DNA of 64,000 nucleotides from Macrocystis pyrifera (taxonomy: Eukaryota; Sar; Phaeophyceae; Laminariales; Laminariaceae). Every line of letters starts with the position of its first letter. The first letter of the stretch is position 1. Of the stretch, positions 1 to 63,087 are shown piece after piece. The DNA is taken from NCBI GenBank assembly GCA_031763025.1, contig JASSKH010000022.1, positions 1,833,232 through 1,897,231 on the forward strand, given 5' to 3'. Made by a program: the position numbers and the translations under genes. The notes under the pieces are model-generated. The model was not told the origin of the DNA. It was given only the letters and a program-made list of their open reading frames with translations, and did not search any database.

Positions 1-2510
1 CTCCACCGTCAAAGGGAAAAAATACAGCAGGATCAAGGGGGAGTGAGGGAGCACAACAGTACCAGACCGCGTAGGACCATACCCTCTACTCCACCGTCAA
101 AAGAGAGAATACAGCAGTATCGAGAGGGAGTGAGGGGGCATAACAGTACCAGACTCCGTAGGATCATAACCTCCACTCCACCGTCATATCGAGAGAATAC
201 AGCAGTATCGAGGGGGAGTGAGGGGGCACAACAGTACCTGACCCCATAGGATCACACCCTCCACTCCCCCGTCAAAAGAGATAATACTGCGGTATCGAGA
301 TGGAGTGAGGGGGCACAACAGTATCAGACCCCGTAGGATCATACCCGCCACTCCACCGTCAAAAGAGAGAATACAGCAGTATCGAGAGGGAGTGAGGGGG
401 CACAACAGTACCAGACTCCGTAGGATCATAACCTCCACTCCACCGTCATATCGAGAGAATTCAGCAGTATCGACAGGGAGTGAGGGAGCACAACAGTACC
501 TGACCCCGTAGGATCACACCCTCCACTCCGAAGTCTGAACGAGAGAATACAGCAGTATCGAGAGGGAGTGAGAGGGTACAACAGTACTAGACCCCATAGG
601 ATCACGCCCTCCACTCCACCTTCAAACAAGAGAATACAGCAGGATCGAGAGGGAGAGAGGGGACACAACAGTACCAGACCCCGTAGGACCATACCCTCTA
701 CTCCCCCGTCAAAAGAGAGAATACAGCAGTATCGAGAGGGAGTGAGGGGGCGCAACAGTACCAGACCCCGTAGGGCCATACCCTCTACTCCCCCGTCAAA
801 AGGGATAAAACGGTAGTATCGAAAGGGAGTGAGGGGGAACAACAGTACCAGACCCCGTAGGATCATACCCTCTCCTCCCCCGTCAGAACGAGAAAACCCA
901 GCAGCATCAAGCGGACGGGAGGGAGCACAACAGTACCAGACCCCGTAGGACCATACCCTCCACTTTAACGTAAAGACGGGAGAATGCTGCAGTACGGGAG
1001 AATGCTGCAGTATCAAGAGAGAGAGAAGGGGCACAACAGTACCAGACCCCGTAGGACCATACCCTCTACTCCCTCGTCAAAGCGGGAGAAAACAGCAATA
1101 TCGAGAGGGAGGGAGGGGGCACAACAGTACCCGACCCCGTAGGGCCCTACCCTCCTTTTTTAACGTCTAAACGGGAGAATGCAGCAGTATCAAAAGGGAG
1201 GGAGGGGGCACAAGAGTACCAGACCCCGTAGGACCATACCCTTTACTCCATCGTCAAAGAGGGAGAAAATAACAGTATAGAGAGGGAGGGAGGAGGCACA
1301 ACAGTACCCGACCCCGTACGACCATACCCTCCACTCCACCGTCAAGACGCGAAATAATACTGTATCAAGAAGGAGGGAGGGGGCACAACAGTACCCGACC
1401 CCGTAGGACCATACCCTCTCCTCCCCCGTCAGAACGAGAAAATCTAGCAGCATCAAGCGGGAGGGAAGGGGCACAACAGTACCAGACCCCGTAGGACCAT
1501 ACCCTCCTCTGAACATCCAAGCGGGAGAATGCAGCAGTATCAAGAGGGAGGAAGGAGACACAAGAGAACCAGACCCCGTCAGACCATACCCTCTACTCCC
1601 CCGTCAAACGGGAGAAAACAGCAGTATCGAGAGGGGGGGAGGGGGCACAACAGTACCCGACCCAGGATCACACCCTCCTCGCCATCGTCCAACGAGAGAA
1701 TACAGCAGCACCAAGAGCATACAGCAGTATCGTGGGGGGGCACAACAGTACCAGACCCCGTCAGACCCTACCCTCTACTCCCCCGTCAAGCGGGAGAAGA
1801 CAGCAGTATCGAGAGGGAGGGGGGGGGCACAACAGTACCCGACCCAGGATGACACCCTCCTCGCCACCGTCTAACGAGAGAATACAGCAGCACAAAGAGC
1901 ATACAGCAGTATCGAGGGGGGGGTGGGGGGGCACAACAGGACACTCCTCTCCCCTCCCCGTCTAAGCCAAATCGCGGCCTCGTACTGTAGTCAGTACGAG
2001 GCAAAAAATAAATGCAAATGTATTCTGTACTCAGTACGAGCGAAAGATTGCCGCAGTATCGAGGGAGACCCTTCGATCCACCGTCCAACGAGAGAATACA
2101 GCGGTACAACGAGGGAATACGGCCGTAACGAGAGGGAGTGAGGGGCACCACAATACCCGACCAGGATCACACCCTCCTCGCCACCGTCAAACGAGAGAAT
2201 ACAGAAGTACAAAGAGCATACCGCAGTATCGAGGGGAGTGGGGGGGTACAACCGCCCCCCCCCCCTTCCTCTCCGCCGTCAAAACCAAATCGTGGCCTCG
2301 TACTGTACTCAGGACGAGCGGGAAAATGCAGAAGTGTCCTGCACTCAGTACGAGCGGGAGAGTGCAGCAGTATCGAGGGAGAGCCGTGAGTGAAAGGACA
2401 CCGCCGGACCCGGCACCTCGCCATCCGCCCCTCGACTCCACGGACCAGTACGAGCACATACCACCATCTCGGGTAACTCGAGTACCCTCCGTATACGCAC
2501 GTCAATTGGC
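1..2510. repeat. ~87-bp minisatellite array, open at left edge
   Basis: Tandem array with a unit of 87-88 bp. The landmark CAGCAGTAT, or a one- to three-base variant, recurs at 112, 200, 287, 374, 462, 550, 637, 724, 811 and 899. After about 960 the units diverge, and a short block (GGGAGAATGCTGCAGTA) is doubled at 978-1013. From about 1,930 a second-order structure appears: two similar ~45-bp blocks start near 1,957 and 2,274. Because 87 is a multiple of three, long reading frames stay open by chance on both strands (up to 202 codons on minus). I do not regard them as genes. The array starts before the window. Confidence 0.93.
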
Positions 2511-4640: not shown

Positions 4641-6339
4641 AAAGACGAGAACACAGCACAAAGCAGGCCTGGAAATAACAGCTAAAAATGCAGTAAACAT
4701 ATGAATTATGAAATGAAGCAGCATATAAGTGACGCAAGGAGATCGTAAAAGATGCTGCTGATAGAAGAGAATCAAACCTGCTGGAGGAAAACGTATAGCG
4801 GTGGCACCGACGACGATATCGGCGCAACGACTGCGGCAGGGGAAGAAAGCAAAGAGGCAAACAAGGCATAATCGAGGCAGAAGAGAGAGAGAGAGAAAAG
4901 AGAAAATTGTACTCGAGGCGGGGGTGATAGTAACATGGGTTCCCGCCTCCGCTACCAAATAAGTGATTAGGGGACTTCGTCACGCGCTGACCTGTCTCAT
5001 TTCCACTCTCGTCAGTAGCGGTGTCAATTGTCACTACTGCCGTTGTTGCGCCCCCCCCATTAGACAACTCAACTAAAACAAACGATTTTTTTAACGGAAT
5101 TCAAGAGCTAGTCAAACCGATACCTTGCCATCCGATCTATTTTCATTGCTGCATTCGTCGGAGCTGTTTTATCAGTACGGCTGCCCCCTTCCTCCCTTGT
5201 CGCCGCTCTGGGCACCCTGAGCTGCGTGACGTAGCCCCTCTCCGCCTCGCCCCGGGGCCACCTCGCCATGGAGCAGCCCACCGGTTCGACGACCCCACGA
5301 TATCGCTTCCCACTCTTCTTAGCCGCCCTCGGCCATAACACTGTATCTGCGCCGAATAGCAAAGGGGAGGCTTCCGTGGACCCCTCAGTGGCTTGAATAG
5401 CCCTGAATTCGACAGCTAGACATCGGGCCTACAGTAATTCCTTTCTTGTCGGCCTGGTCGCCAACCGTCGTCCCGAGCAGCACCTGACGGGTCAGCCGTC
5501 ATTGATCGTCCGCTCTACGCCCCCCGCGGAGAGGAGACGTCGTTGGTCGATGGTCGTCTCAACTTTTTCGCATTGTGCCTTCTCTTGAGGGCCTGGGCGA
5601 ACGACACGATAAGGTGGCCGGTGCGTTGTCGGCGCTGGAAGCCAATGATCGCGTATGTGTTTCGGTCTGTATTGCGTATCATACAGTCTCGAATGGCTTT
5701 CCTGTTGCATATACCAAGTACACACCGGTATATGTGTCCGTACAGCTCACTAAGATATATGCAAACTGTCGACGAAGCATACATGGTATGTGCTATGAAG
5801 GGCGCCGGGTTTCTCTCCTCTCTTTCTCCAGGTTAAACTCTCGCCTTTTTAACTCTTTCCTGCAACCACATGCTTTGCCCTCTCCCGATGCTGTGTTAAA
5901 ATTTATTCAGACTTTGTTCTCTTCCCTTTTTTCTGTTTTTTTTTTTGCTCTCTTCATATCCCTGATGGGATGGGCGTAGGGAGGCGACTTTAGTTCTGAG
6001 CAGGTGATCGACCATGTGGTAGCGTTGCCCTCGAAACCCATGCTTGGTGCTTCCTTGACTTGTCTGTTTTCTTCTGGTTCGTTGTGCTTTGCCTCTATTA
6101 CACCACACCTTAGACTAATGCCTTCCACAAAGGCTATTATTGGGTCTATATGTACGGTCTACGAGTATGCGATGCACCAAATTTACTCCTGCACTTTTTT
6201 TTCTCTTCATAATTTTTCTGTTTTTTCGTCTTTTTTTTTTGCAACTGGTATACGCTGCATGAAAATTCTCCAAAACTAATACGTACCAGGGTATAGAGTT
6301 GGGGTTTACAAAACATATTTCAAAATCATGTTCTGTAAG
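4641..6339. other. no gene recognised
   Basis: Contains only short competing frames (up to 167 codons on minus at 4,564-5,067, rich in S, L and F from CT-rich sequence). There are poly-T/poly-pyrimidine patches at 5,920-5,950 and 6,190-6,240. I see no domain, RNA gene or repeat boundary. Confidence 0.5.
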
Positions 6340-6740
6340 GTTCATGGTATCCGGTTATGGCGTAGAAGTCTCACAGGACGTTCAGAAGTATCGGGTACGG
6401 GTATGGAAGCCTTAGATGACTGACATTAGTTCCGGGCAGATATATAAATGTTGTACCCGTAGCCCGGGTATTGTGGTACGGGCGCACATAACTCACAGAA
6501 GTTCCAGGTACGGAGACGAATATCATACATAACTCGCAGATGTTCCTGGTACGGGTATGAAAATCTTGAAGAACTCACAGAAGTTCCGAGTAGTTGTGCA
6601 AATGTTGTACCCATACCCCGGGTACTGTGGCACGGGGAGTACACAACTTACAAAAATTCTGGGTACGGGTATGAATGCCGTACAGAGCCCACAGAAGTTC
6701 TTGGTACGCGTATCACCCGGCCGGGTGAATGTTCTTCGTG
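6340..6740 (+). repeat. degenerate GTACGGGTAT-containing repeat cluster, copy 1
   Basis: Several diverged units share the words CACAGAAGTTC, GGTACGGGTATGAA, AATGTTGTACCC and GGGTA(T/C)TGTGGYACGGG. They occur at about 6,384-6,500, 6,535-6,660 and 6,655-6,720. The same words in the same order reappear at 8,664-8,790, so this is a dispersed family as well as a local tandem. No coding capacity is evident. Confidence 0.8.
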
Positions 6741-6843
6741 AGGGGGCGAATCAACAGCAGGATATCTGGTGAACAAATACTTGGTACATAAAATGCATTT
6801 GGTATACTGCGAATGGTACGTTGGACATACTGATACATCTTTC

Positions 6844-7075
6844 TATTACGGGGGATCATAGTAAATAGGACCTGTGGTAAACACAAAAACCTATACAGTT
6901 ACTTATTGTTACCCACAATATTTGGTCTTCTATAGTAAATAGGACCTGGTCCTCTATAGTAAATAGGACCTGGTCCTCTATAGTAAATAGGACCTGTGGT
7001 AAACACAAAAACCGATATAGTTACTTATTTTTACGCACAGTATTTGGTCCTATTTACTATGGTCCTCGGTAATAA
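6844..7075. mobile_element. MITE-like inverted-repeat element, composite copy
   Basis: The left end (TATTACGGGGGATCATAG) is the reverse complement of the right end (CTATGGTCCTCGGTAATA) apart from a few changes. Both continue into TAGTAAATAGGACC or its complement. The interior (CACAAAAACC ... TTACTTATTNTTACNCACA) occurs twice (6,882-6,927 and 7,004-7,050), separated by three 24-bp tandem copies of TATAGTAAATAGGACC (6,931, 6,955, 6,979). It therefore looks like two nested or tandem elements. Simple copies of the same family lie at 14,310-14,421 and 15,611-15,718. It carries no reading frame and would be a non-autonomous DNA element. Transposase source and target-site duplication were not determined. 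Confidence 0.85.
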
Positions 7076-7214
7076 AACATAACATGTATAGACCATTTGC
7101 AGCCCATATGGTTTTGTTGATGTTGCTGCCTTCTACGGTTTCCACGAAGATTATCGTTATAATTTCCTGGGAAACGAATTCCGCGGTCACAGGTCTAAAT
7201 CTTAAAAATAACAG

Positions 7215-8071
7215 ATAAACAAATCTATAACCCACCCATCCATTCCCTCACAACAAACCCAAACTTCTCTATAATCATCCACCCCCTTCCACCCACATAT
7301 CAAAACACTCAATTCTAAACATAATATATCTAAAAATTCTAAAACCCTATCTACAAAAATAACTAACTATCTATCTTATCTCTCTACTACTACTATCTAA
7401 CCAAACCAAAATACAAATACTAAATCTAAATTCTATAACTATTCTAAATCTATCTACCTAACTATATTCCCTACTAAATAATCTAAATTTCTAACCCAAA
7501 TTCTAATATCTACTAAAAATAACCTCTCTATACTAAATTCTATCTAAAATTCAAGATAATATCTACTAAACAAGTCCTACTACCGCCACCAAACCCCCAA
7601 CCCCTCAATAAAATAAAATCTTTCTTAACCACAACTATCTAATTCTAGCTAAACTAATCACAAAACAAACCTCCTAGTTACTTATTTTTACGCACAGACA
7701 TACATATACTAACCCAAACCAACCAACATTAACTTCTCTACTCCAACAATCCAACTTAATCTATCTATTCTATCTAACAACCCACAACCAACCACCAATC
7801 ACCAAATAACTATATCTACAAAATAAAAACCAAATCTAATTCTATCTCTAAACTCACTTCTAATCTATCTATCTAAAACTTCAATATTCTAACTATAACC
7901 AACTAACTAACTATATCTACCTACCCCATTTCTACTAAAAACTAATCTATCTAATGCACTCACCAAAACTAAACAAAAATTCTATAACTATACTAATTCT
8001 AAAAAACCTCCTAAATAAAATCCCCCCCCCCCCTAACCCCCCATCTATCTATAAACAACCAAATTAAAACA
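7215..8071. other. G-depleted (minus-strand C-depleted) tract of ~857 bp
   Basis: By direct count only about eight G residues occur on the plus strand between 7,215 and 8,071, while C is plentiful; A and T make up the rest. Recurrent words are CTATCT, TTCTAA and AATTCTATAACT. The composition switches abruptly: 7,040-7,214 and the sequence after 8,072 have normal G. Three of the few G residues lie inside a 23-nt segment (7,675-7,697) identical to the interior of the adjacent MITE (7,018-7,040). There is no reading frame of note. Nothing here resembles a gene. The tract looks like normal sequence in which nearly every minus-strand C has been replaced by T, or like an unusual G-less satellite. 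Confidence 0.9.
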
Positions 8072-8663
8072 AAGCTACTGACACCACCACAGGACCGAAA
8101 GGTATTGCCCCAAGAGCAAAACCTTGCAACACAGTAGTACCACTGCATTCTGGATGGTATTATTGATGTCTGCAAGGCCGAAAATTCTTTCAAGCGCGTA
8201 ATAAGCGGAAAAGCCAAGGAAAATGTAAACCGATGACTATCACAGCAACAGCAGATCAATCAATTAAACCTATTAAGAATACGAAAATAAATACAAAGAG
8301 GCACACCGGGCAACCAAAAGTCGCACTTCAAGCGTCAAACAACCGAGAAGCAAATGCGAACACATATTCATACTTGCACAAGCGTGTCTGATATTGTTGA
8401 GTCCCACCGACAAGACTGCTCAATGAAACAGGCGAATATTGATTTGCAGTACACCTGCAGACTGCTTGTGAGAGAAGGGGTTTTCTGTGTGCTGGTATGG
8501 TGTATTTTCGCGTTCGGTGTGTGACTGATGGAGAGACGTGGCGTCACAACGCATATAGAGCATACGCGGGCACTCCTGGGGTTGAACCCGAATACGTACT
8601 GGACTCCGGGCATTGCGGCAAAGGTGTGCTCGTACCCCGGGCAATCTGAAAAAGTCTTACAAA
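8072..8663. other. no gene recognised
   Basis: Normal base composition returns. Short frames occur on the minus strand only (74-101 codons at 8,368-8,673), without motifs. Confidence 0.5.
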
Positions 8664-8800
8664 GCTTGCACAAGCCGGGTACGGGTATAAATTAAGTGCA
8701 TAGCTCACAGAAGTTCCGCGTAGGGGTGAAGAAGTCTTTCAGGACTCGGAGAAGTTCCGGGTATTGTGGCACGGGCGTACACAACTCCAGAGGTCGTCGG
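8664..8800 (+). repeat. GTACGGGTAT-containing repeat cluster, copy 2
   Basis: Shares with 6,340-6,740 the ordered words GGGTACGGGTAT, CTCACAGAAGTTCC, GGTATTGTGGCACGGGCG and ACACAACT. It runs directly into the 43-bp minisatellite. Confidence 0.75.
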
Positions 8801-8840
8801 AGTACCAGTCCTCCGGGTACTACTGTAGTCATGTCGACTT

Positions 8841-9216
8841 CTCGTACCCTTCGGACTGATGGTACTCAGTCCTCTCAGGCCCCAGGTACCCTGAGGACTA
8901 ATGGGACTCAGTCCTTTCGGCGCCCCTGGTACGCTGAGCGCTGGTGGGACTCAGTGCTTTCAGCCCTCCAGGTACCCCTAGGACTGGTGGGACTCAGTCC
9001 TTTCAGCCCCCCAGGTACCCTGAAGACTGGTGGTACTCACTCCTTTCAGCCCCCCAGGTACCCTGAGGACTGGTGGTACTCACTCCTTTCAGCCCCCAAG
9101 GTACCCTGAGGACTGGTGGTACTCAGTCCTTTCAGCTCCTCAGGTACCCTGAAGACTGGTGGTACTCACTCCTTTCAGCCCCACAGGTACCCTGAGGACT
9201 GGTGGTACTCAAGCTA
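8841..9216. repeat. 43-bp minisatellite, about 8.7 units
   Basis: GGTACC (or GGTACG) recurs at 8,885, 8,928, 8,971, 9,014, 9,057, 9,100, 9,143 and 9,186, exactly 43 bp apart, with a partial unit on the left. Each unit contains GAGGACTGGTGGTACTCA followed by GTCC or CTCC. In the GTCC variants GGACT and AGTCC can pair as a small stem. Units differ only by substitutions, so the array is young. A unit of 43 shifts the frame every repeat, so coding is unlikely. Confidence 0.97.
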
Positions 9217-11049
9217 TCTAACGCACCCCCGGTGATACGCAACATGCACGGAAGCCCCGCAGCTAGGAAGTGGGGTCGTGTGGCGGTGTCATAACGAGGG
9301 GATGTGCTGAGGGTTGTAATGATTGCTGATGAGCTTTAAAAGACCTCGGCCAGACCGCAGATGGCGTGCCAACAAGGGAGTGTTACAACATGGGGTCGAC
9401 AACAAAGGGGCGATACCGACGACAAGGGGTGCGCTAGCATGTGAGATCCTTTGGTCTGAAACCATCTTGCTTTTCCATTCACACGCAGAAATGCTGGTAG
9501 TGGTAAAGACACGCCTGAAACCGGAGATGACAGCACATATCCCCTCCTTGCTTGAATGCCGTAGAACGGTCACCGGTTGGGTATGAAGTAGCTTTGCACG
9601 GGCGCGACTTCCGGGTTGGAAAGGCAATTGAAGCATTTTTTGTTTTCGCTGCGGTTGGAATAAATGTTTTAGGTGTTTCAGCACGATTTGTCAAGTGGTT
9701 TTCGAGTTTACATTAACCCAACAGTCGCATTGTTTGCCCTCCGTCGGCCCTCGGGGGGGGGGGGGCTGCACGCATGCGGCGCCTGAGCGCAACACGCTTT
9801 CCAGCTCCCGCGTGCTTCACGGAACAGACGCCGGAGCCCTAAATTCCGTGTGCCCTGGTTACGGTTACCACCAGAGGATATTAGGGATGTCAAAACTGCC
9901 GAATGTGTCACCCTTGTTCTTCTGAAGAACTAACTGCTGCCATAAACATTTGAAACCGAGTCACCCCACGGTAAGGGTTGCACGTTTTGGGAGAAAGGTC
10001 TCTGACCGATTGAGATTCCTAAGTGAGGAACTACCAGTTAGGATGAAAAATGTACTCGTTTATTCGTTTTAGGACTAGCGCAAAGAAGTGCCGGTCAAGT
10101 GGCGCGAACAAATTTCTTCCAAGCATTTTATTGGGTGAGACATTAAGCTCCTAATGTGAGAGGCTCAGGAACTTCTGGTGCACCCCTGCCGTGGGATGAC
10201 TCAACTCTTGTTTCTAGCCGACGCCCCGAGCAATACGACACCGTAGCATTGCGCACTGGTTCGTTTCCGAGAAAATGCTACGAGAACACGCGACAAATCG
10301 GTGATTGCCCACAAACCTACTACCGGCGCCGATGGTTGGGGCTTAGGGCACACCAAGAGGAGAACTAGCAGTGTTGTGGGCGATCGACATCCATTAGGTG
10401 GTCTGAAGGCGTTATTTTGTTCGATGTTGTTTTCAGACGCAGGTATGGTATTCAGCGTGCCCCCGGTGATGAAAGCCACGATCGAAAAACGAACCAAAAC
10501 GTATGGCACCCGGTGTGGTCATGTGGGGGTGTGCGTTATGTAAGGGTGTGTGGTTTCTTCCGTATTGTACGATACGACCTTTTACGACAGTTTTTTTTTC
10601 TCCAATTCAATTGGTCGACCACACTGAAATCTTGAGAACCTTACAAAAAAATATTCCCCGATTTCCAATTTTTACCCTAGATATTAGTTCAGTGGTGCGG
10701 TAAAGGCTACTGCGAGCCGGCTTCCACTGCACCAGGTACCTGGTACACAGCACACTCATGGACACCCTCCATCGAATCGATGTAGTACTATAAACCCGCG
10801 GATACTAGAGTACCTCCATATAGTTGTATGCGAATTGAACTACTCGATCCTTCGTACTATAAAGACCAACTTCATACATCACAAGCATAACCTCCGTTGT
10901 CCGATCAAATTCCTAGTATTCATGGACCGCTTCCAAAGTCGATTGTCCGGACAGTTCCGATCGATTGGCAGTAGCCAACATTAGTTGTCCGGAATCTATT
11001 GCCTTGTCCCGAAGTCATGGCTGCGATTGAACGACGTGCTATCGTCCAG
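9217..11049. other. no gene recognised
   Basis: Short overlapping frames only; the longest is 131 codons on minus at 9,289-9,684, opposed by an 87-codon plus frame, and neither has a motif. A G13 run lies at 9,753-9,765. TACCWGGTA occurs at 10,737-10,745. If the downstream exostosin relic once had a first exon it should be here or further upstream, but I cannot find one. Confidence 0.45.
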
Positions 11050-32930: not shown

Positions 32931-33576
32931 ACTATCATACCCCTGGTTTGATGCTTGTTTCATGGTTTTGTGTTGTCGCTGCTATCTTGCAACATGGTCC
33001 AGTAGATATGATACTAAACTATGATATGTCAACCATACACACGCGCTGTAGTCAAACACGTACCTGGTACTTTGGCACCTGATACCATATATACGTACAA
33101 GCAGAACACACATAAGTAAGCTGCTCTCAACCTTTGTGGTGCCGTGACTCAACAGGAATACAATACGAACCCAGAGCGTACCTGAGAGCTTCGTATTCAC
33201 GAATGGATGCTGACCCCCCCCATCCCCCCTCTGGCTCGGCGATGATCCATGCAACTATCATACCCCTGGTTTGATGCTTGTTTCATGGTTTTGTGTTGTC
33301 GCTGCTATCTTGCACCATGGTCCAGTAGATATGATACTAAACTATGATATGTCAACCATACACACGCGCTGTAGTCAAACACGTACCTGGTACTTTGGCA
33401 CCTGATACCATATATACGTACAAGCAGAACACACATAAGTAAGCTGCTCTCAACCTTTGTGGTGCCGTGACTCAACAGGAATACAATACGAACCCAGAGC
33501 GTACCTGAGAGCTTCGTATTCACGAATGGATGCTGACCCCCCCCATCCCCCCTCTGGCTCGGCGATGATCCAAGCG
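32931..33576. repeat. 323-bp tandem duplication, almost identical copies
   Basis: ACTATCATACCCCTGGTTTG starts at 32,931 and again at 33,254, and the text then repeats for about 320 bp. I found one substitution (AACATGG at 32,991 against ACCATGG). It ends about 210 bp before the exostosin start codon, so it probably doubles the upstream regulatory region. Each copy contains TACCTGGTA and a short C-rich run (CCCCCCC-ATCCCCCC). Minus frames of 72 and 90 codons across the copies are the same text and are not convincing genes. Confidence 0.97.
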
Positions 33577-33784
33577 TTGTATTTACATCACAACGACGGA
33601 CCGGAAAGTTTTCAGTACCTTGCGAAGGTGTTCAACAACCGAGTTGATTGCACGTACTTTACGACTCCACAGTGCCCCTCCTCTCGCACTATCGTACTTC
33701 GAGGCCGACCACGGCAGCAGCACGGCAGCTAGGGTGTATCTCAAATAGCAGCACCGTGCGATAGGGTCTATTGCACTGGGAAGA

Positions 33785-36700
33785 ATGCGAGGACTCGCTG
33801 TCCGGAGCGGTAGGCGTATTATGCTCATCGCTCGAGCCATTCTGCTAGCTTCGATAGGGGCAATCATGCTTTCGCGCGAGAAGTGCTATCTTGCGACCTC
33901 AAGCGAAGCAGGACTTCAGCTGCAGGTCGAGGACACAGACCGGGTGAATGTCTACGTCTACGAGGACCCCGTGTTTGACCACACGGCATTGATACAGTGC
34001 TACCGCGACCTTCACAACGGCGTGGCTCCTTGGCAAGACGAACGTGCTGACATGGCCCAAGACATGGGAGAAATTTGGCTACACCAGTCGCTGCTTTCGC
34101 ACCCATGGCGCGTTTTAGATCCGGAAGATGCGGACGTTTTCTTCATCCCACTGTACCCCGTGCTGGGTTTGAAGCTCGTAGGAAACCGGAAGTCTTGCTG
34201 TGGGATCAATCATCAGCAGAGAGTAACCAGGACCATCATGCACCTCGTGACGAACAGCACCTATTTCAACAGGTTCGGGGGGGCAGATCACGTCGTTGTG
34301 TGCGCGTGGTGGAACTGCAAGCGAGCTCTCAGTCCACAACACCGGATGCTGTTACGGCGCGTGATGGTGGGCATCAACCAGAATGTCAACGCCTGGTCGA
34401 AGTGGGGCTGTCGGCAGAGGATGGTGACCGTCCCATACACAGCGAGCAGCGCCTTGACGACCCCCGGGGCGATTGGCGGGCGGAGTGCGAAGGAAAGAGA
34501 CATCCCTTTTACTTTCGTCGGCGCATCGCGCGGAAGGCCCGAAAGGAAAAACTTAAAGGTGAGTGGGTGGATAGGAGACTTATCAAAAGGCACAGCAGTA
34601 CAGAGCAATCGGCTCAGCAGCTATTTTGTGTATGTATGTCCACGTCGCTTAGGGTGGGTGCTCCGGGATCCCGCAGACCACGAATCTTGTACATATATCA
34701 TGGTCCTCTGGCAGCCTATAGGAGGTACTTTCGGCACTATCGAAAACGTTCTAAACTTATCGTAGTCATGGGTGTGTACGCTCAAAATAGATTGTGTCGG
34801 ATGTCATGACTCGGACAGTAGGTATCTACCTTTGGTCTTGAGTAGGATATGGTCTACTAATAGAAGTCATAACACGTGGAGATCACCTGGGGTAACGTAT
34901 GGCTACTGCCGTAGATGGTGGGATACACTGTGACCAGGGCGATATACTGTATTTTGTGGGGCAGCTATCAGTGTGCATACGTTTCCGTGAGCACAGCTTA
35001 TCGTCGTAGCAGCCGGCATTATGAAGGCGAAGTAGTTGTTCAGGAGCACACAACTGACCACGAGTCAGCGAACCCGCGCAACTGGTAGCAGGGTCTCACC
35101 GGAGGCATAAAACGTGAAGCTTTCTTTGGTCGCTGCTCTCAGTGATTTGGGGAGGGTTGCTTGCATGCTGAGTGGAGGAATACGGCGGTTTTGCGTCCTG
35201 TCACAACAAACAACTACAGTAGAGCAGTGATACTATTTTTAATAACTACCAGCGTATACTGAACCATTTAATCGGCCGTACTCACAGCTTACGTTTTTCT
35301 CTTTAAAATGAACTTTATCAACGATGAAATACGTCAGCTGTGAGTTCGTAAAATTTTAATGGTTGACACTCTACTTTGCAACCTGCGTAATAGGCCCTGT
35401 CTACACACCATTATTTACTGAATTTTACAAGGTGTATTTATGAAATATGTAGCTGTGAGTTCGACTGATCGAATTATTGTCGATATTCACAGTCAACTTT
35501 GAAGGCTGCGTCAAACGTCTTTTCTATATTTTGTTTATAGTATGGGGGTTATGCACAATTCATGGTGCATTTATGTAGGACTTGGTATTACAGCAGTAGT
35601 ACTGAGTTTTGCACGTTTGTAAATTTTTAGAAGATTTCCCTCTGGATTGTAACGGTTAGACGAAATAGTACAATCATAGGAGGTGTCACCTAACGTACTC
35701 CAGCAGGTATGAAAATATTCAAACCGAGCTGCACACAGGAAGGTACTGTAGATTAGGTTCTCAGAGGGTGACGCAAGAGTGGCCGCGCAAGAGACATGCT
35801 ACTTCGAATTACCAGGTATGCAAGTGCCACACACGATGTACCATGTATGCTATTGATCGAGCAGTTCAAATTGGGGCAACGCAGCAAGATAAATACACCC
35901 TACGACAGAGCAATAATGCAGAGCAGCAGCATCAGAGAGGAGCATACAGTCAACTGGTACGACTATACTGGAGGAGGTGTCGACAAATAATGTGTAACAG
36001 GGAATGCTTCCGGTACCAGAGACAACAAGTTGTGAGGGGGTATATGTATATCATGGTTGTGCGGCTACTATACGCACTTTGCTGCACCACACCTGAACTC
36101 ACATCAGTACATCAAAAATTAGTGCACCAGCTATTGTAAGATGCATATACAGCAGCAACCAGTACTTGTATTACGATCGTCAGAGAACTTTCTGCAAACC
36201 AAGTACACTTGAGAACTATTTATTTTCTGTGGCACAAAGTATAACGCGGCGTCAGCTATTATAGTCGTACTTGTGTGTATACATTATCTGCACATTAATA
36301 AATCGCTTGTTTTACCCACAGCTTCACCAGTACACCCAGTGTCCATCCTGATTCCTTATCCTAGAGAGATACGACTTCTGTGGTCACAGACTGTGAGACA
36401 AAGTAATACCAAAATAAAAAATGAATCGCAACTTCATGAGTAAAGCAGGTGAAGTGCCAGCGTGCCAGCGTATATCGCCTTCGGTCGTCTTGGTACCCTG
36501 TTTGCAGTCCTTTAAACCCTAAAGCCCCAAGGCTCTGTTTGTTTTTTGTTTTGTTTGTTTTCCCTCTCTCTCTCCTCTTCTACTCGTCCACTACAATATA
36601 GTGTCGATTATTGGGACTCACAAATCGCTCTAGAAGCTAAAACTCTGGATATCCGTGGCCCCGAAGATCCACTACGGTCCCCGCGGCTGCCGATCGCACT

Positions 36701-44062: not shown

Positions 44063-46633
44063 GAGGCAGTGGTTGCACGAGTCCGAGACGATAGTGAACA
44101 AAGAGCACTCGCTGCTGTTCTGCGCCCCGCCCAACGCTGGCTCGTTACAGTTCAGGATGCTCGCCAAACGCATGAAGGTGTGATAGTATTCTGTCCGTGT
44201 ACTTGTAGACAGAAGCGATTCGAACGACGGAAGGGCGGAGTGGAGCGCAAGAGGCCGCCCCCGCGAGTAGTTGGATGTCGTTCGTTGGTTAAGTTGCTGT
44301 TATGCCGCGTGCTTATGTGATCACCCAATACAATACAAGTCTAGCGTATAGTGCCGCCAAAAGAATATTATATTGTGTCACCAGCGCTGAAGCACTATGA
44401 GCGGTAAACGTGGTTCGGTCGTTACGCCGATAATATCGTCGGAATATTTACGAAAGGCGTATCGGACGCGCCCGTCGGCTGCTCATCTTGCGTGTGTGAT
44501 TCGGGCTGCCAGCGTAAAGCAAGATGTATTTCAAGGTGTATCACGTACGCAGGTCACTGTCCTGGCTTTCTGATCAAAGCAACATTTCAACCAGCTGTAG
44601 AGCGCTTTACCGAAGCCTCGAACTGTACGTCTTGTGTCATCGGCAGATCTACACTAAGTTCCGTCGGCAGCCCACGTCATATGTGACCTACTGTAGTTGA
44701 CAGACGGGTGACAAGCTTTTTGGCTGATAATTAGTGATGACCTTCGATACGAAATTGGAACGTGAAAGTGTGGTGAGCTTAAGCTTTATTTTTACGAATC
44801 CGCCGGAGGATAGAAAGAAAGAAAGATAAACTTTGACCTTCTCCAAGTACATGCGGACCCTTCGTCCCCTGCCCTGCGTTGCTTTTGCTGTTTCTCGGTC
44901 CGTGCTCATTCGGAACCGTCTACCACTCATGCTACATACACAACATACAATGAAGGGCGTGGATCACTGGGCGGTGTCGGATGATCCATCGCTATTGTTT
45001 GATGCGGTGCCTTCGGAGCTTCCCCTCTTGGACTTGGATGACACGCGGCTGATGGAGGACATCTACAAGGACAACGGCAGTGGTTGGATCAAAATCGCAG
45101 TCGTCCGCGACCCTGTGACGAGGCTTCTATCGGCGTACCTCGACCTTGTTCACGTGTGGCCGTCCGTGTCGACAACGTCATCATCCCCCGACCACGACCC
45201 GCGTCAGCCTTATGACGGATTGCGGAGCGGTGATGGCTGGGACTGGCTTGATGCTATCAAGAAGCACCGGGGCTTGAAAGAAGATGCATCCGTAGGGGAG
45301 GCATCTGAAGCAGGACAGCACCGACGATCACGAACGGCGGGAGAGTACAATTTAAAAGGGCCAACGAGAAGCGGGTATAGGTCACGCAGCTTGCACGATA
45401 CAACCGTGCCTACGGTCCCGACCTTCGGGGAGCTTCTCGACATGCTGGAGGCTGATATAAGGGCGGTGCCGTCATCGTTCAGGCCAGTCGCTAGCCTTTG
45501 CGGAATGTGGCATTCGCCGTTCGACACACTCATCCCTTTCGAAACTTTGCAGGTGCGTGTAAAGAGAACCCGAACGATATACACTATAACTCCGGCGAAT
45601 ATTTCATACACTCTGGTTCTTGCTGCACGTTTGTCAGCACCGCAGCATGTGCGCGTTCGATTGTTTTCCGACCACGCACGAAATGTCACGCACTTCAAGG
45701 GAAAGTGCGCTAAAGGCCACGTTGGGCGGGGACGAGCAGATGTTAGCTCGGGATTGACTGTGAAAGTGACATTTGTGTCACCACAGCGCGGCATTCGTTT
45801 GTGAAGTCGAGCGGACGTCTATACTTGTGTATATATATCTGAAGTTCAGGTTTGAGTGAGCTGAAGTGAGTTTCGTACGTTGACGTTGTTTTCCGACCGT
45901 AGTCATGGATACGACGCAAGACCGCTTTGTGACGCAGTCGATAGTGTACAGAGATACCACCGAACAAGACTAGGCAAAAACCAGTTGTCACTGCCTTACC
46001 CCACATACGTACTGTCGTCCCCTGCGCGCATACACCAAGCGTGCTCTGGAAACCCCGACTTAAAAATCAACAAGTCCTCGATGCAAAAAGAATGTCGCCC
46101 CAACAAGGTTGAAACCCGTTCTGCAAAATAAGTCCAACCGATTCGAGACCGTAGTTACACTTGGCAATGAATACGTTCGTTCTCACTGAACCGATTCGAC
46201 CGTTCCACAGAGAACGTCGACAAAAGTGCTCAAATCCCTACCCGGCGATGTCTGGAGCTCTTTCGGGGAATCGGGATGGGGTCCTGAAGGCAAGCACGCG
46301 CTCATGGAGTACGACTACGGGACCGCCGTGCGCCACGGCATGAACGCGGACCAATACGAGGCAGGTCGTCTCTCGAACAGGACCATGGAACGGGAACCAA
46401 ACGAGGGACATGGCGGGGGGGCAGGAGTTCAAACGTCTGATCCGCCGACCACCTCTCTTCGTGCCGGAAACCTGTTCTCGGCCGGCTCGTGCGCGTGGAC
46501 CAAGTACTACGCCGATCAGACGATACTTGATAAGGTCGGTCACCTGTACAGCGTAGATTATGGCTTATTTGGGTGGTACGATCTCGACTCGTGGCAGAAG
46601 AGGCTGGAGGCGTGCCTTAAATGGCGTGAATAA
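44063..46633 (+). CDS. carbohydrate-type sulfotransferase, three 3' exons (5' end not found)
   Basis: Exons 44,063-44,177, 44,956-45,552 and 46,211-46,633 have GT-AG borders and consistent phases (both introns phase 0) and give 377 residues plus an unknown N-terminus. Exon 1 holds the 5'-phosphosulfate loop LLFCAPPNAGSLQFRMLAKR (residues ~17-36). Exon 2 holds the 3'-phosphate motif VVRDPVTRLLSAYLDL (~87-102). The C-terminal exon has the LY...D...FGW pattern common in Golgi carbohydrate sulfotransferases (SCAWTKYYADQ...KVGHLYSVDYGLFGW). Such enzymes move sulfate from PAPS to polysaccharide hydroxyls in the Golgi lumen. A variable charged insert (about residues 105-170) separates the motifs. 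It lies 1.5 kb downstream of the exostosin gene on the same strand, which suggests a shared pathway. The dead copy at 17-19.2 kb confirms the exon borders. Confidence 0.9.
44740..44820 (+). repeat. dispersed repeat, copy 2 (partner at 25,960-26,040)
   Basis: GATACGAAATTGGAACGTG, AAGTGTGGTGA, GCTTAAGCTTTATTTTT and AATCCGCCGGAGGAT match the first copy. It lies within the sulfotransferase intron between exons 1 and 2 and is followed by a short GAAA repeat. Confidence 0.8.
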
Positions 46634-59048: not shown

Positions 59049-60510
59049 ATGCCCTGGAAGGGATCGGCTCAAGAAGAGCGCAACTCTCCAAGTGACGTTT
59101 AAACGCTGCGACGCGAGGTCGAACTGGCGATGGAGAACAGAGAGGCATCGATGCTGAACACCATGAGGGACATGATGGCCGAGTTAATGAGGAACAACGG
59201 CCGATCGGAGTCCGGCAGCGCTGTGAGTAGCGTTGCTGTAGGGGAGAGCCCACAAGGGGCAGTACCCACTGCTGTAAGAGAGATTGCAGCAGAAGAAGAG
59301 ACAAATTTGCGTGAGGGCGCCTCGCCAGATTTGGGAGCAACTGGACGCGGAGGAACTGCGTTGCCTGTCGAGGTTGGCCCACCGAGGGGTGAGCCAGACC
59401 AGCACGGGAGGACATGAGGATGGGGTGCATACCCCGGCGGTGAGTTGGGTGGTGGATTTGACCTGCCTCTATCGCGCCATTTGGCCTTCAAACACACTTC
59501 TGTGCCATCGTTTAGTGGGCTAAAATCTGAGTTCAACCCCTGGACAAGAGACGCTCGGTATTTCGCCAAAGGAGTTGGTTTCTTGTCTGCTTTCGTGTCG
59601 GATCCACTACAGTACATTCCCGTAGGGGAATTAGACACCGAAAACTCGATGCTTGTCGCTAGGGGGTTTAGCCGCGAAACTGTGCACAGACATACACTGC
59701 CATGGAATTTCCTGTCGACGGCCCTCAAGAGCAAGAGCGATAAAAGCATTTTGCACCGGTGTACCTCGCCGAGGCAAGCGTGGGACGCTCTCCTTGCGTG
59801 GTACGGCCCTCAGACGACGGGGGCCAAATCAGACCTCTCCCGACGCCTTAACATTTTTAAGATGGCGCCGGAGAGCAACCCGCTCGAGGAGATGGGCAGG
59901 ATCGAGGATCTTTGCGCGGAAATGCGAACAGCAGGAATGCCAGTAGACGACCACATGCTGTACACCATCTTTACTGACGCTCTGCCTGCCGAATACGAAG
60001 TGGAGGCTCGGAACCTGGCATCACGTGACAGCATCGGCCGTCATGACATCATCAAGGCTGTTCGAGAACGGCATCACCGACTTTCTGGAAACAGGAAGAA
60101 GGGGTCCAACGCTGGCCACGCAGGCCATGCTATGTACGCCGGCGCCGGCGGCGGTGGCGGTGGTCGCCGGAAAGGTGGAGGAAATGGCAAAGAAAAAGGT
60201 GGACGACGGGGTCACGGACGAGGCGGTAGATGCTCCAACGAGGACGGTGGTGGCTCGGTCGCGGCTGCTGGTGGCAATGGTAGCGACGCCAAAGCCGCCA
60301 GCGGAAGTACTCGAGTGGGCAAGTGTCATAGGTGTGGCAAGAAGGGCCGTTGGAGGAGCGAGTGTACGGCGAAGCTATGCAGTCGATGCCAGGGACGCGG
60401 GCACTCTGCCGATGCCTGTCCCATGTCCACGGATCGATGCAGTCGATGCAACGGGCTGGGGCACGCTGCTGATGTCTGCCCCTCATCGAAAGGAGAAGCT
60501 GTCATGGCAA
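59049..60510 (+). pseudogene. Copia gag with three CCHC-type zinc knuckles, interrupted
   Basis: The gag start is probably ATG at 59,049 (MPWKGSAQEE), followed by a stop after 17 codons. A second frame runs 59,130-59,417 to an in-frame TGA, then the same frame continues from 59,418 (FSGLKSEFNP; EVEARNLASRDSIG; Gly-rich hinge). The nucleocapsid part spans 60,324-60,480 and has three knuckles. The first is CHRCGKKGRWRSEC, where the zinc-binding His is replaced by Arg. The second is CSRCQGRGHSADAC and the third CSRCNGLGHAADVC, both intact. The protein would form the virus-like particle and bind element RNA, but the stops prevent a full product. Confidence 0.9.
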
Positions 60511-61010
60511 TGACGAGTAAGGGTGGGGCAAGGGACGACGACCCGGAAAAAGGTACGGTCCAGGCCTCAGTTTTCAAGGCCGAAGAGACAGGCAAGTGGA
60601 GCGATGATTCGGGGGAAGGGGAGTCTGCTTGGCAGGTAGGAGACGAGGCTTGGATATGTGATAGTGGTGCGTCTACTCACATGACGCCCTCCGTTGACTG
60701 CATGATCAATTATAGAGAATGCAACTTGACTCTCCGAATCGCTGACGGATCCACCCGAGCGATCGAAGGTTATGGTGACGTGAGTGTTGTATTTCGGTCC
60801 GGAAACGGTCCCGTGCAAGTGCTGCTTACGAACGTTGCGCACGTGCCGGATCTCCGCTACCACTTATTTTCCCTGCCCACTCTGGTCAAAAACGGCCAAA
60901 CTTTCGACGGGCGCCCCACGGGGGTTGTAATCAGGCTCAAGTCGGAGCGTTCGATCGTGTTCTCGTTGAGTGGGACTCTCCACAGCCTGTACGGCTACCG
61001 GGTCGACCGT
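60511..61010 (+). pseudogene. Copia aspartic protease region
   Basis: In frame with gag: AWICDSGASTHMTPS carries the retropepsin active-site D-S-G, followed by IADGSTRAIEGYGDV and VAHVPDLRYHLFSL, all typical of Copia proteases. The frame is lost near 61,000, where the reading moves to another frame for the GAG-pre-integrase part. Confidence 0.92.
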
Positions 61011-61807
61011 TTGTGGAGAAAATGCCTGTGCTGTACTCGCCCCGGGACAACTGCCCAACAAGTCTGCAATAAACATAAACGATTTCCACTGCGCTGCTGG
61101 ACACTCCCACGAGGTACTAGTACGCAAGACCGCGGAGCAGCAAGGGATTGTCTTCGAGGGAAAGCTGCTGGAGTGCAAAGGGTGCTCCATGGCAAAGGGT
61201 CTCCGCAAAGGTATCAAGCAATCCACACACACGGGCAGATAAGAAGCTCGGGAGGGTTTTTGTGGATTTGAGTGGACCAAAGGTGGTAGAGTCTCTCGGG
61301 CGGAAGCGGTATACTCTCATCGTGCGCGACGATTGTTCACGATATACGTGGGTGTACTTTATGCGCCACAAGTCGGACGCCGCGGAAATGTTCGAGCAGT
61401 TCCTTGCGGATTCTCGTGTAGACGGTGTCCCTTCTACGGTGGTAATCGTCCGATCTGATGGGGGTGGTGAATTCCGCGGGGGAAAGTTCGACGACCTGTG
61501 TAGATCACGAGGGATCAAGCAGGAATTCACGACGGCCGACAGTCCCCAATTCAATGGAGTAGCAGAGCGCGCGCTAGGTTTGATAGAGACGGCCGCAATG
61601 GCGGGCCGAATCCAGGCTCAAGAGCTTTTTCCTGGCGCGAAACTCCCTGCCACGACGTCGTTGTGGGCGGAAGCGTCCCACTGGGCGTGTGACACCTTGA
61701 ACCGCACAGCAACAACAGCTAACCCGCAGAGCAAGTCGCCGCATGAGATGTGGCATGGTAGCCCCCCCCCGGTAGTACTACTGCCCTTCCTCAAGCCTGG
61801 CTATTGA
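61011..61807 (+). pseudogene. Copia GAG-pre-integrase and integrase, two frameshifts and a stop
   Basis: The zinc-binding pre-integrase domain reads FHCAAGHSHEVLVRK...LLECKGCSMAKG (H-x3-H-like and C-x2-C) in one frame to about 61,220. The integrase core continues in the next frame: FVDLSGPK (first Asp), VRSDGGGEFRG (second Asp), FNGVAERALG (Glu), then LWAEASHWACDTLNRT. TGA at 61,805-61,807 follows LKPGY and is in frame with the downstream part (KRENKSQAKAQECFYLGP). The catalytic D-D-E is complete although the frame is broken. Confidence 0.93.
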
Positions 61808-63087
61808 AAGGTGAAGAGGGAAAACAAGTCACAGGCGAAAGCGCAAGAGTGCTTTTACCTTGGTCCTGCAACAAACTACCCCGGAGACTCAGTACGAGTG
61901 CTGACAAAGAACTGCACTGTGCTCATAACGCGCAATGTTACCTGGCAACGCGTGTCGCCTGCACCACCTGTACCTGCCCAGGCGAATGACTCCCTGTCTA
62001 CGGAAAAGGGGGGGTCAGAGGCAGATGACGTGAGTACGTCGGATCGAGGTGGTGGGGGGGTGGTGGATGAGCTGGACGACGGTCTGGCTCACTTGAACAA
62101 CCTCGACGTGACGTGGGGTTTTGACCTGGACGCGTTTATGCTGGAGCGCGCACAGCAGGCACCTGCCGCCGGCGAGGCCGGCGGCGAAACACCCGAAACG
62201 ATGGGTTCGTCTCAAGGGGGCGCCGTGGACGCCTCCTCGGTCCCGGCAGGGAGGGCCGAAACACCCGAGACGATGGGTTCGTCTCAAGGGGGCGCCGTGG
62301 ACGCCTCCTCGGTCCCGGCAGGGATGGCCGAAACAGCCGAGACGATGGGTTCGTCTCAAGGGGGCGCCGTGGACGCCTCCTCGCTTCCGGCACGTGGGGT
62401 TTTGACCTGGACGCGTTTATGCTGGAGCGCGCACAGCAGGCACCTGCCGGCGGCGAGGCCGGCGGCGAAACACCCGAAACGATGGGTTCGTCTCAAGGGG
62501 GCGCCGTGGACGCCTCCTCCTTACCGGCAGGGAGATCCGAAACAGCCGAGGCGATGGGTTCGTCTCAAGGGGGCGCCGTGGACACCTCCTCGGTCCCGGC
62601 AGGGAGGGCCGAAACAGCCGAGATGATGGGTTCGTCTCAAGGGGGCGCCGTGGACGCCTCCTCGGTCCCAGCAGGGAGGGCCGGAAACGACCCGGGCGCA
62701 GCATCAGCCTCCGACACCGTCCAAGGGAACGGTGAAGATCCCCCCGCGGTCCTGTCGCGGAGGACCGCACACGAGCTCAGCAGCTGGGGCCGGCCCCCCC
62801 CGACAGTACGGGGCCGGACCCGAGGTCAAAGCCAACGCCTGGAGGGTGAACCTGCTGTGCACCAGGTAAGGATGGATGAAGGAGCCGCAGACGCGCTGCT
62901 TGCGGCAGCGTACGAGTCGTGGACGAAGCCTGGGAGTATGCTGGATCGTACGTCTTGGACGACGGAGGACGCAGTGGCTTTGATGGCCGGAGGACCTGCT
63001 GTGGAGAACAAAGGGGAGTTGAGCGTGTGCATGCCGAGTGGTTTCCCGGAAGACGTCGAACCGCCCCCACAGTCCGTAGCAGTGTAG
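61808..63087 (+). pseudogene. Copia linker with 72-bp tandem repeats and a 281-bp duplication
   Basis: After a conserved stretch (YLGPATNYPGDSVRVLTK) the frame runs into 24-residue repeats with core ETMGSSQGGAVDASS, at 72-bp spacing (ATGGGTTCGTC at 62,201, 62,273, 62,345 and again after 62,480). A block starting GTGGGGTTTTGACCTGGACG at 62,113 is repeated at 62,394, 281 bp away. Since 281 is not a multiple of three, the second copy is out of frame and a new frame opens (62,419-63,087). A variable linker between integrase and RT is usual in Copia; this degree of repeat expansion is not. Confidence 0.92.

What the first reader, a model, noticed from the sequence alone, without database searches (positions are those of the whole stretch)
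7215..8071. An 857-bp tract in which one strand has lost nearly all its C
Direct reading shows about eight G in 857 plus-strand bases while C stays abundant; both borders are sharp. Read from the minus strand, the tract looks like DNA in which nearly every C became T. Candidate causes: deamination of a long exposed single strand (for example during resection or R-loop exposure) fixed by replication; a programmed strand-specific editing process; a G-less satellite; or a chemically converted read in the assembly. The first two would be new biology for this kind of genome. I know of no standard repeat class with this pattern.
Basis: partly seen in the sequence, partly recalled or inferred. Interest (0 to 1): 0.85.

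Follow-up and report, generated by a model that had tools for sequence, protein, structure and literature searches.

The report
Nearly guanine-free insertion in kelp DNA
A unique 887-letter piece of what appears to be giant-kelp DNA has almost no G on one strand, and it turns out to be an insertion, most simply patched into a chromosome break, rather than resident DNA that was chemically changed where it lay.

Summary
In detail: 8 G in 857 bases. The genome's size and piece count match the giant kelp assembly. The tract is an insertion: the three homologs found that reach its left junction are empty there. The insert (7195-8081, 887 bp) shows no target-site duplication and ends within 20 and 8 bases of the G-poor borders. 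Inside it, a 23-mer (7675-7697) equals part of a MITE 657 bp upstream; no other genome site is closer than 2 mismatches, and it keeps its three G. That looks like end joining with local filler, and suggests the surrounding segments were already G-poor when joined. Deamination of resident DNA is therefore unlikely; flanks show no strand bias. Composition fits G→A better than G→T, G→C or G deletion, though not comfortably, which would suit captured single-stranded DNA that had been deaminated. Four degenerate probes found no unconverted source, and two deaminase-family searches were uninformative. An assembly error cannot be excluded without reads. The end-joining frame is ordinary; the origin of the G-free DNA is unsolved.

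The parts
7195..8081 (.). 887-bp insertion, nearly G-free on the + strand (11 G in all)
   Evidence: Absent at this point from three homologous loci; one place in the genome; G positions
7215..7554 (.). G-free segment 1 (340 bases without G)
7555..7674 (.). G-poor middle part with 4 scattered G (7555, 7574, 7585, 7648)
   Evidence: four of the five non-filler internal G lie within 94 bp, P about 0.02
7675..7697 (+). 23-bp filler identical to 7018-7040 of the neighbouring MITE, with 3 G kept
   Evidence: only two exact places in the genome, next best 2 mismatches
7698..8073 (.). G-free segment 2 (376 bases, one G at 7956)
6846..7072 (.). MITE-like element with imperfect inverted-repeat ends of about 27 bp and TA on both sides (read from the sequence); holds the likely donor of the filler; also absent from the closest paralog
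7073..7194 (.). left flank, homologous to C203:1.204 Mb (6 of 118 aligned bases differ), C204:4.430 Mb and C223:11.620 Mb
8082..8600 (.). right flank, homologous to the C203 paralog (40 of 434 aligned bases differ) and, less clearly, to C204 and a short stretch of C223

Best explanation
The tract is an insertion made when a chromosome break was joined. SHOWN (if the assembly is right): it is an 887-bp insertion without target-site duplication, and it contains a 23-bp copy of sequence lying 657 bp away. INFERRED: a broken end briefly copied the neighbouring MITE (polymerase-theta-like or other template-switching end joining) and captured one or two ready-made fragments whose + strand had no G. 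INFERRED, least certain: those fragments were single-stranded DNA (reverse transcript, displaced strand or foreign ssDNA) in which nearly every cytosine had been deaminated. After capture and replication, those cytosines would read as T on the minus strand and A on the plus strand. The few G outside the filler may have arisen later by ordinary mutation.
For: Empty site in three homologs. No TSD seen; about 1-3 bases at the ancestral junction are lost or changed. Filler: 23 of 23 identical to the local MITE; of 79 genome sites within 3 mismatches, only these two are exact. The filler keeps 3 of 3 G while the 258 bases directly after it have none and the part before it has few. A excess (42%) fits G→A: order-0 rank 20 of 296 host segments, whereas G→T and G→C rank 0 of 296 at orders 0-4, and G deletion ranks 23 of 214 at order 0 but 0 of 214 at orders 1-4. 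Five G at 834 non-filler sites of 7215-8071 is below the about 13 expected by mutation since the paralogs split, P about 0.01, so the segments could have been born with no G at all.
Against: No unconverted source: four A/G-degenerate probes of 32-35 bases with up to 3 mismatches found only the tract itself. Near-complete, context-free conversion exceeds what known deaminases leave in vivo (recalled). At Markov orders 2-4 the tract sits at the extreme tail of G→A-converted host DNA (ranks 7, 1 and 4 of 296), and the reversed tract fits about as well. At one site of a copia element 212 copies were counted: none of the 100 listed is hypermutated (112 not listed), and a fully converted probe found none. 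APOBEC_N and NAD1 gave no match, with silent controls.
Confidence: 0.4

Rival explanations
1. Capture of DNA that was natively G-free (foreign DNA, an extrachromosomal element or an unsampled satellite), joined at a break in the same way, with no deamination involved.
For: Same insertion and filler evidence. The tract is rich in CTA and TCT (81 and 55, against 24.2 and 12.5 expected from converted host DNA) and lacks the host lag-2 and lag-3 signal, so it need not come from host DNA.
Against: No related sequence found in the genome, no exact match in IMG/VR for two probes or in GTDB genomes for one probe, and no BLAST match among phages and plasmids. No native DNA free of G over hundreds of non-repetitive bases is known to me (recalled). 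The excess of A over T is not predicted.
Confidence: 0.2
2. Assembly or sequencing artefact: a stretch of false consensus from PacBio long reads (Canu, Racon).
For: No reads could be mapped. If the genome is the one of PMC10498591, it was assembled from PacBio reads with Canu and polished with Racon (passages; which reads were used for polishing was not seen). The tract has no relative anywhere searched.
Against: About 100x coverage of a haploid clone. Both junctions run cleanly into flanks that align with the paralog. The tract contains a 23-mer copied from a neighbour. Dropped-G base calling does not fit the composition at orders 1-4 (rank 0 of 214).
Confidence: 0.15
3. In-place conversion of a formerly ordinary insertion, confined to the insert because only the insert was exposed (for example as a single-stranded loop in a heteroduplex with the empty allele).
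For: G-poor borders coincide with insertion borders within 20 and 8 bases, and both halves lost the same base on the same strand.
Against: The filler in the middle kept 3 of 3 G and would have to be later. Flanks show no strand bias: paralog to window G>A 19, A>G 16, C>T 18, T>C 18 in 1234 aligned sites.
Confidence: 0.12
4. De novo, largely untemplated synthesis at the break by an end-joining polymerase that did not use one nucleotide.
For: Sequence without known relatives. A lag-4 signal (z 4.8, host 95% bound 2.4) and more repeated words of length 8 and 10 than the 95% bound of order-2 simulations (299 against 259, 58 against 48) could reflect slippage.
Against: Repeated words of length 12 only equal the 95% bound and those of 14 and 16 lie below it. 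The filler contains all four bases, so the nucleotide pool was not lacking one. Hundreds of untemplated bases lacking one letter are unprecedented as far as I know (recalled).
Confidence: 0.1

Closest known systems
Filler-DNA insertions of polymerase-theta-mediated (alternative) end joining, and captured DNA such as T-DNA or organelle fragments
   Same: No target-site duplication, tiny target loss, short copy of nearby sequence in the insert
   Different: The captured DNA is nearly free of G on one strand and has no identified source; involvement of polymerase theta not tested
APOBEC3-type G-to-A hypermutated reverse transcripts
   Same: Loss of G on one strand with excess of A; would act on single-stranded cDNA
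   Different: Near-total rather than partial loss (comparison recalled); no unconverted relative found, no context test possible, no deaminase identified (inconclusive)
Kataegis or strand-coordinated clusters in break-induced replication
   Same: Cytosine loss confined to one strand, linked to a break
   Different: Those are scattered changes in resident DNA (recalled); here the changed DNA is an insertion and the flanks are normal
Fungal repeat-induced point mutation
   Same: C to T change of selected DNA
   Different: Acts on both strands of repeats (recalled); here one place and one strand

Membership tests
End-joining insertion with templated filler | Insertion relative to an empty ancestral site | tested here: met
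   Three of the three homologs listed that reach the left junction are empty; right flank clear in C203, gapped in C204, short in C223
End-joining insertion with templated filler | No target-site duplication, small target loss | tested here: met
   Junction comparison with three homologs, by eye on the alignments
End-joining insertion with templated filler | Short copy of nearby sequence within the insert | tested here: met
   23-mer at 7675-7697 equals 7018-7040; the only two exact places in the genome
End-joining insertion with templated filler | Dependence on polymerase theta | not testable with these tools
   Needs an experiment
APOBEC-hypermutated DNA | Strand-specific G to A relative to an identified relative | tested here: inconclusive
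   No relative found with four probes; composition compatible at order 0, at the tail of host DNA at orders 2-4
APOBEC-hypermutated DNA | Deaminase gene in the genome | tested here: inconclusive
   APOBEC_N and NAD1 gave no match, but the controls were silent as well; other deaminase families not searched
APOBEC-hypermutated DNA | Sequence-context preference | not testable with these tools
   Needs the unconverted source; 4 of 8 retained non-filler G precede C, P 0.19
Satellite DNA | Tandem or many copies | tested here: not met
   One place found in 537 Mb; no tandem array reported within the insert; halves not significantly alike under order-2 simulations

The most novel reading that the evidence does not exclude
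Brown algae possess a very efficient, context-free cytosine deaminase acting on single-stranded DNA (a defence against reverse transcripts or invading ssDNA), and this locus is a fossil of one fully deaminated molecule caught in a chromosome break.
Probability: 0.25. Interest if true: 0.85.

Novelty: new variant of a known kind. Interest (0 to 1): 0.5.

Why it matters
If the G-free segments are deaminated DNA, they would be a record of near-complete one-strand cytosine deamination in a lineage where no DNA-mutating deaminase is known to me (recalled). They would also show that such DNA can enter the germline through break repair. It can be tested by looking for more such inserts and by resequencing other kelps. 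If it is an assembly error, it warns that consensus stretches lacking one base can survive in long-read genomes.

Tried and rejected
Satellite: rejected (one place found; no tandem array in the insert). Relation between the two halves of the tract: a collapsed BLAST gave 70% over 162 columns and raw BLAST 85% over 39, but order-2 simulations reach the alignment score in 92 of 400 trials (order 1: 8 of 400; order 3: 97 of 400), and the best ungapped self-match, 26, equals the simulated 95% bound, so no relation is claimed. Unconverted relative in the window and the 70 kb of sampled genome: the best G→A-collapsed hit (44.1 bits) was no better than that of the reversed tract (45.7). With G deleted the forward tract did slightly better than its control (44.1 against 39.4 bits), and with G→T likewise (39.4 against 34.7, one of the three forward hits being the filler's match); I take none of these as homology. 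G→T, G→C and G-deletion models fitted worse than G→A (in one search G→A also beat a no-G conditional model). The reversed tract scored about as well as the forward tract, so the composition test does not show that the source was host DNA. Coding origin: no 3-base periodicity (lag-3 z -1.0). Known RNA family at 6000-9500: none. Literature searches on the subject returned capped lists in which I saw no title reporting a one-base-free insertion, on read artefacts, returned no paper. Only listings were seen. Passages, not whole texts, were read of PMC10498591 and PMC11836290.

Full report
What was checked. The tract is as described: 8 G in 857 bases while C stays at 253. Its longest G-free run is 340 bases, against 45 elsewhere in the window. 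The chance probability is negligible (log10 P about -94). The G-poor stretch ends at 8073, since the next G is at 8074.

Where it is. The window lies in an assembly of 537,376,219 bases in 223 pieces. This matches the published giant kelp (Macrocystis pyrifera) assembly: 537 Mb, 35 scaffolds plus 188 contigs, haploid female gametophyte, PacBio Sequel II at about 100x, Canu and Racon (passages of PMC10498591).

It is an insertion. Searching the genome with 6200-9200 gave a second copy of the flanks on the same scaffold, 0.63 Mb away (C203:1,202,986-1,204,703, minus strand), in which window positions 7194 and 8098 are only some 15 bases apart. The fetched sequence, aligned, shows the flanks meeting at GGT, one T, then CACCACC. 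Two more distant homologs, C204:4.430 Mb and C223:11.620 Mb, were fetched. They also lack the tract at this point, although the right flank of C223 is recognisable only over a short stretch and that of C204 is gapped. These three are all the matches listed that reach the left junction, apart from the window itself; that search scored 40 of 5318 candidates, so more may exist. Three of three being empty, the window copy most simply carries an insertion of 7195-8081. I see no target-site duplication.

The filler. Inside the insert, 7675-7697 is identical over 23 bases to 7018-7040, which belongs to a MITE-like element at 6846-7072. That element has imperfect inverted-repeat ends, lies between TA dinucleotides, and is also absent from the closest paralog. 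Of 79 genome sites within 3 mismatches of the 23-mer, only these two are exact and the next best have 2 mismatches; the backward control pattern had 1 site. A copy of the neighbouring MITE is therefore far more likely than an independent capture. Copying of nearby sequence into the joint is a known mark of polymerase-theta-type end joining (general knowledge; listings).

What the filler says about the G loss. The filler has three G and kept all of them. The 258 bases directly after it have none; the 120 bases before it have four, and the 340 bases before those have none. A process acting on the whole insert in place, or a polymerase short of one nucleotide, should have touched the filler too. 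The simplest reading is that G-free segments existed before they were joined. The way out is that the filler came later, in a second break; this cannot be excluded. The four G at 7555-7648 cluster near the filler (P about 0.02), so the middle part may be more filler of unknown source. Both segments lack the same base on the same strand, which is a mild point for one source molecule or for a process acting at the locus.

No sign of conversion outside the insert. Between window and paralog flanks, 1234 aligned bases differ at 9.8%, with G>A 19, A>G 16, C>T 18 and T>C 18 (paralog to window).

Age. On the flanks, 30 of 953 sites that are not G in the paralog are G in the window, so about 1.6% per lineage if split evenly. 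For 834 non-filler sites that predicts about 13 G if the insert were as old as the duplication; 5 are seen (P about 0.01). The insert is probably younger than the duplication, and its stray G may be later mutations. This assumes equal mutation rates.

Which kind of G loss. I modelled host DNA with G changed to A, T or C, or deleted. At order 0 the tract lies within the converted-host range for G→A (rank 20 of 296) and for deletion (23 of 214). G→T and G→C are outside it at orders 0-4 (0 of 296), and deletion fails at orders 1-4 (0 of 214). G→A is therefore best. Even so, at orders 2-4 the tract is at the extreme tail (ranks 7, 1 and 4 of 296), being rich in CTA and TCT. Forward and reversed tract fit about equally. 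So a G→A origin is favoured by composition, but an origin from host DNA is not shown.

Search for the source. DNA search found the tract at one place in the genome. Four probes of 32-35 bases in which A stood for A or G, with up to 3 mismatches, found only the tract itself (4 of 4 negative). They cover about 136 of the 887 bases. No exact match was found to shorter probes in viral contigs (two probes) or in GTDB genomes (one probe), and no BLAST match in phages or plasmids. Organelle DNA of the kelp may not be in the assembly and was not tested separately; other eukaryote genomes could not be searched.

Is there a genome-wide G→A process? At one 35-base site of a copia element with 212 copies, the 100 copies listed show at most a few A for G (the other 112 were not shown), and a fully converted form of that site has no match within 3 mismatches. 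Pfam APOBEC_N and NAD1 gave no match, but the control genomes gave none either, so this is uninformative.

Verdict. The end-joining insertion is well supported (I would put it at about 0.75). That the segments were G-free before joining is likely (about 0.6). That they were deaminated single strands is the best single reading but remains unproven. Artefact stays possible (about 0.15) because no reads could be examined.

Noticed in passing
window 1-1890: Diverged minisatellite with a unit of about 87 bp.
   Followed up: no
window 8844-9211: Minisatellite with a 43-bp unit, about 8.6 copies; related stretches occur on many scaffolds.
   Followed up: no
window 32931-33572: Tandem duplication of a 323-bp unit, 2 copies 99% alike.
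   Followed up: no
window 59418-63087: Copia-type LTR retrotransposon pieces (gag, Pol_BBD, integrase core); 212 genome copies counted at one 35-base integrase site.
   Followed up: partly
window 33749-34765: Reading frame with an exostosin GT47 domain.
   Followed up: no
window 44830-45804: Reading frame with a short Sulfotransfer_2 match.
   Followed up: no
window 8089-8094: ACAGGA stands where the C203 paralog and C223 have CGAAT-like bases, next to the right junction; it resembles the CACAGG just left of the insertion and might be another small templated patch.
   Followed up: no
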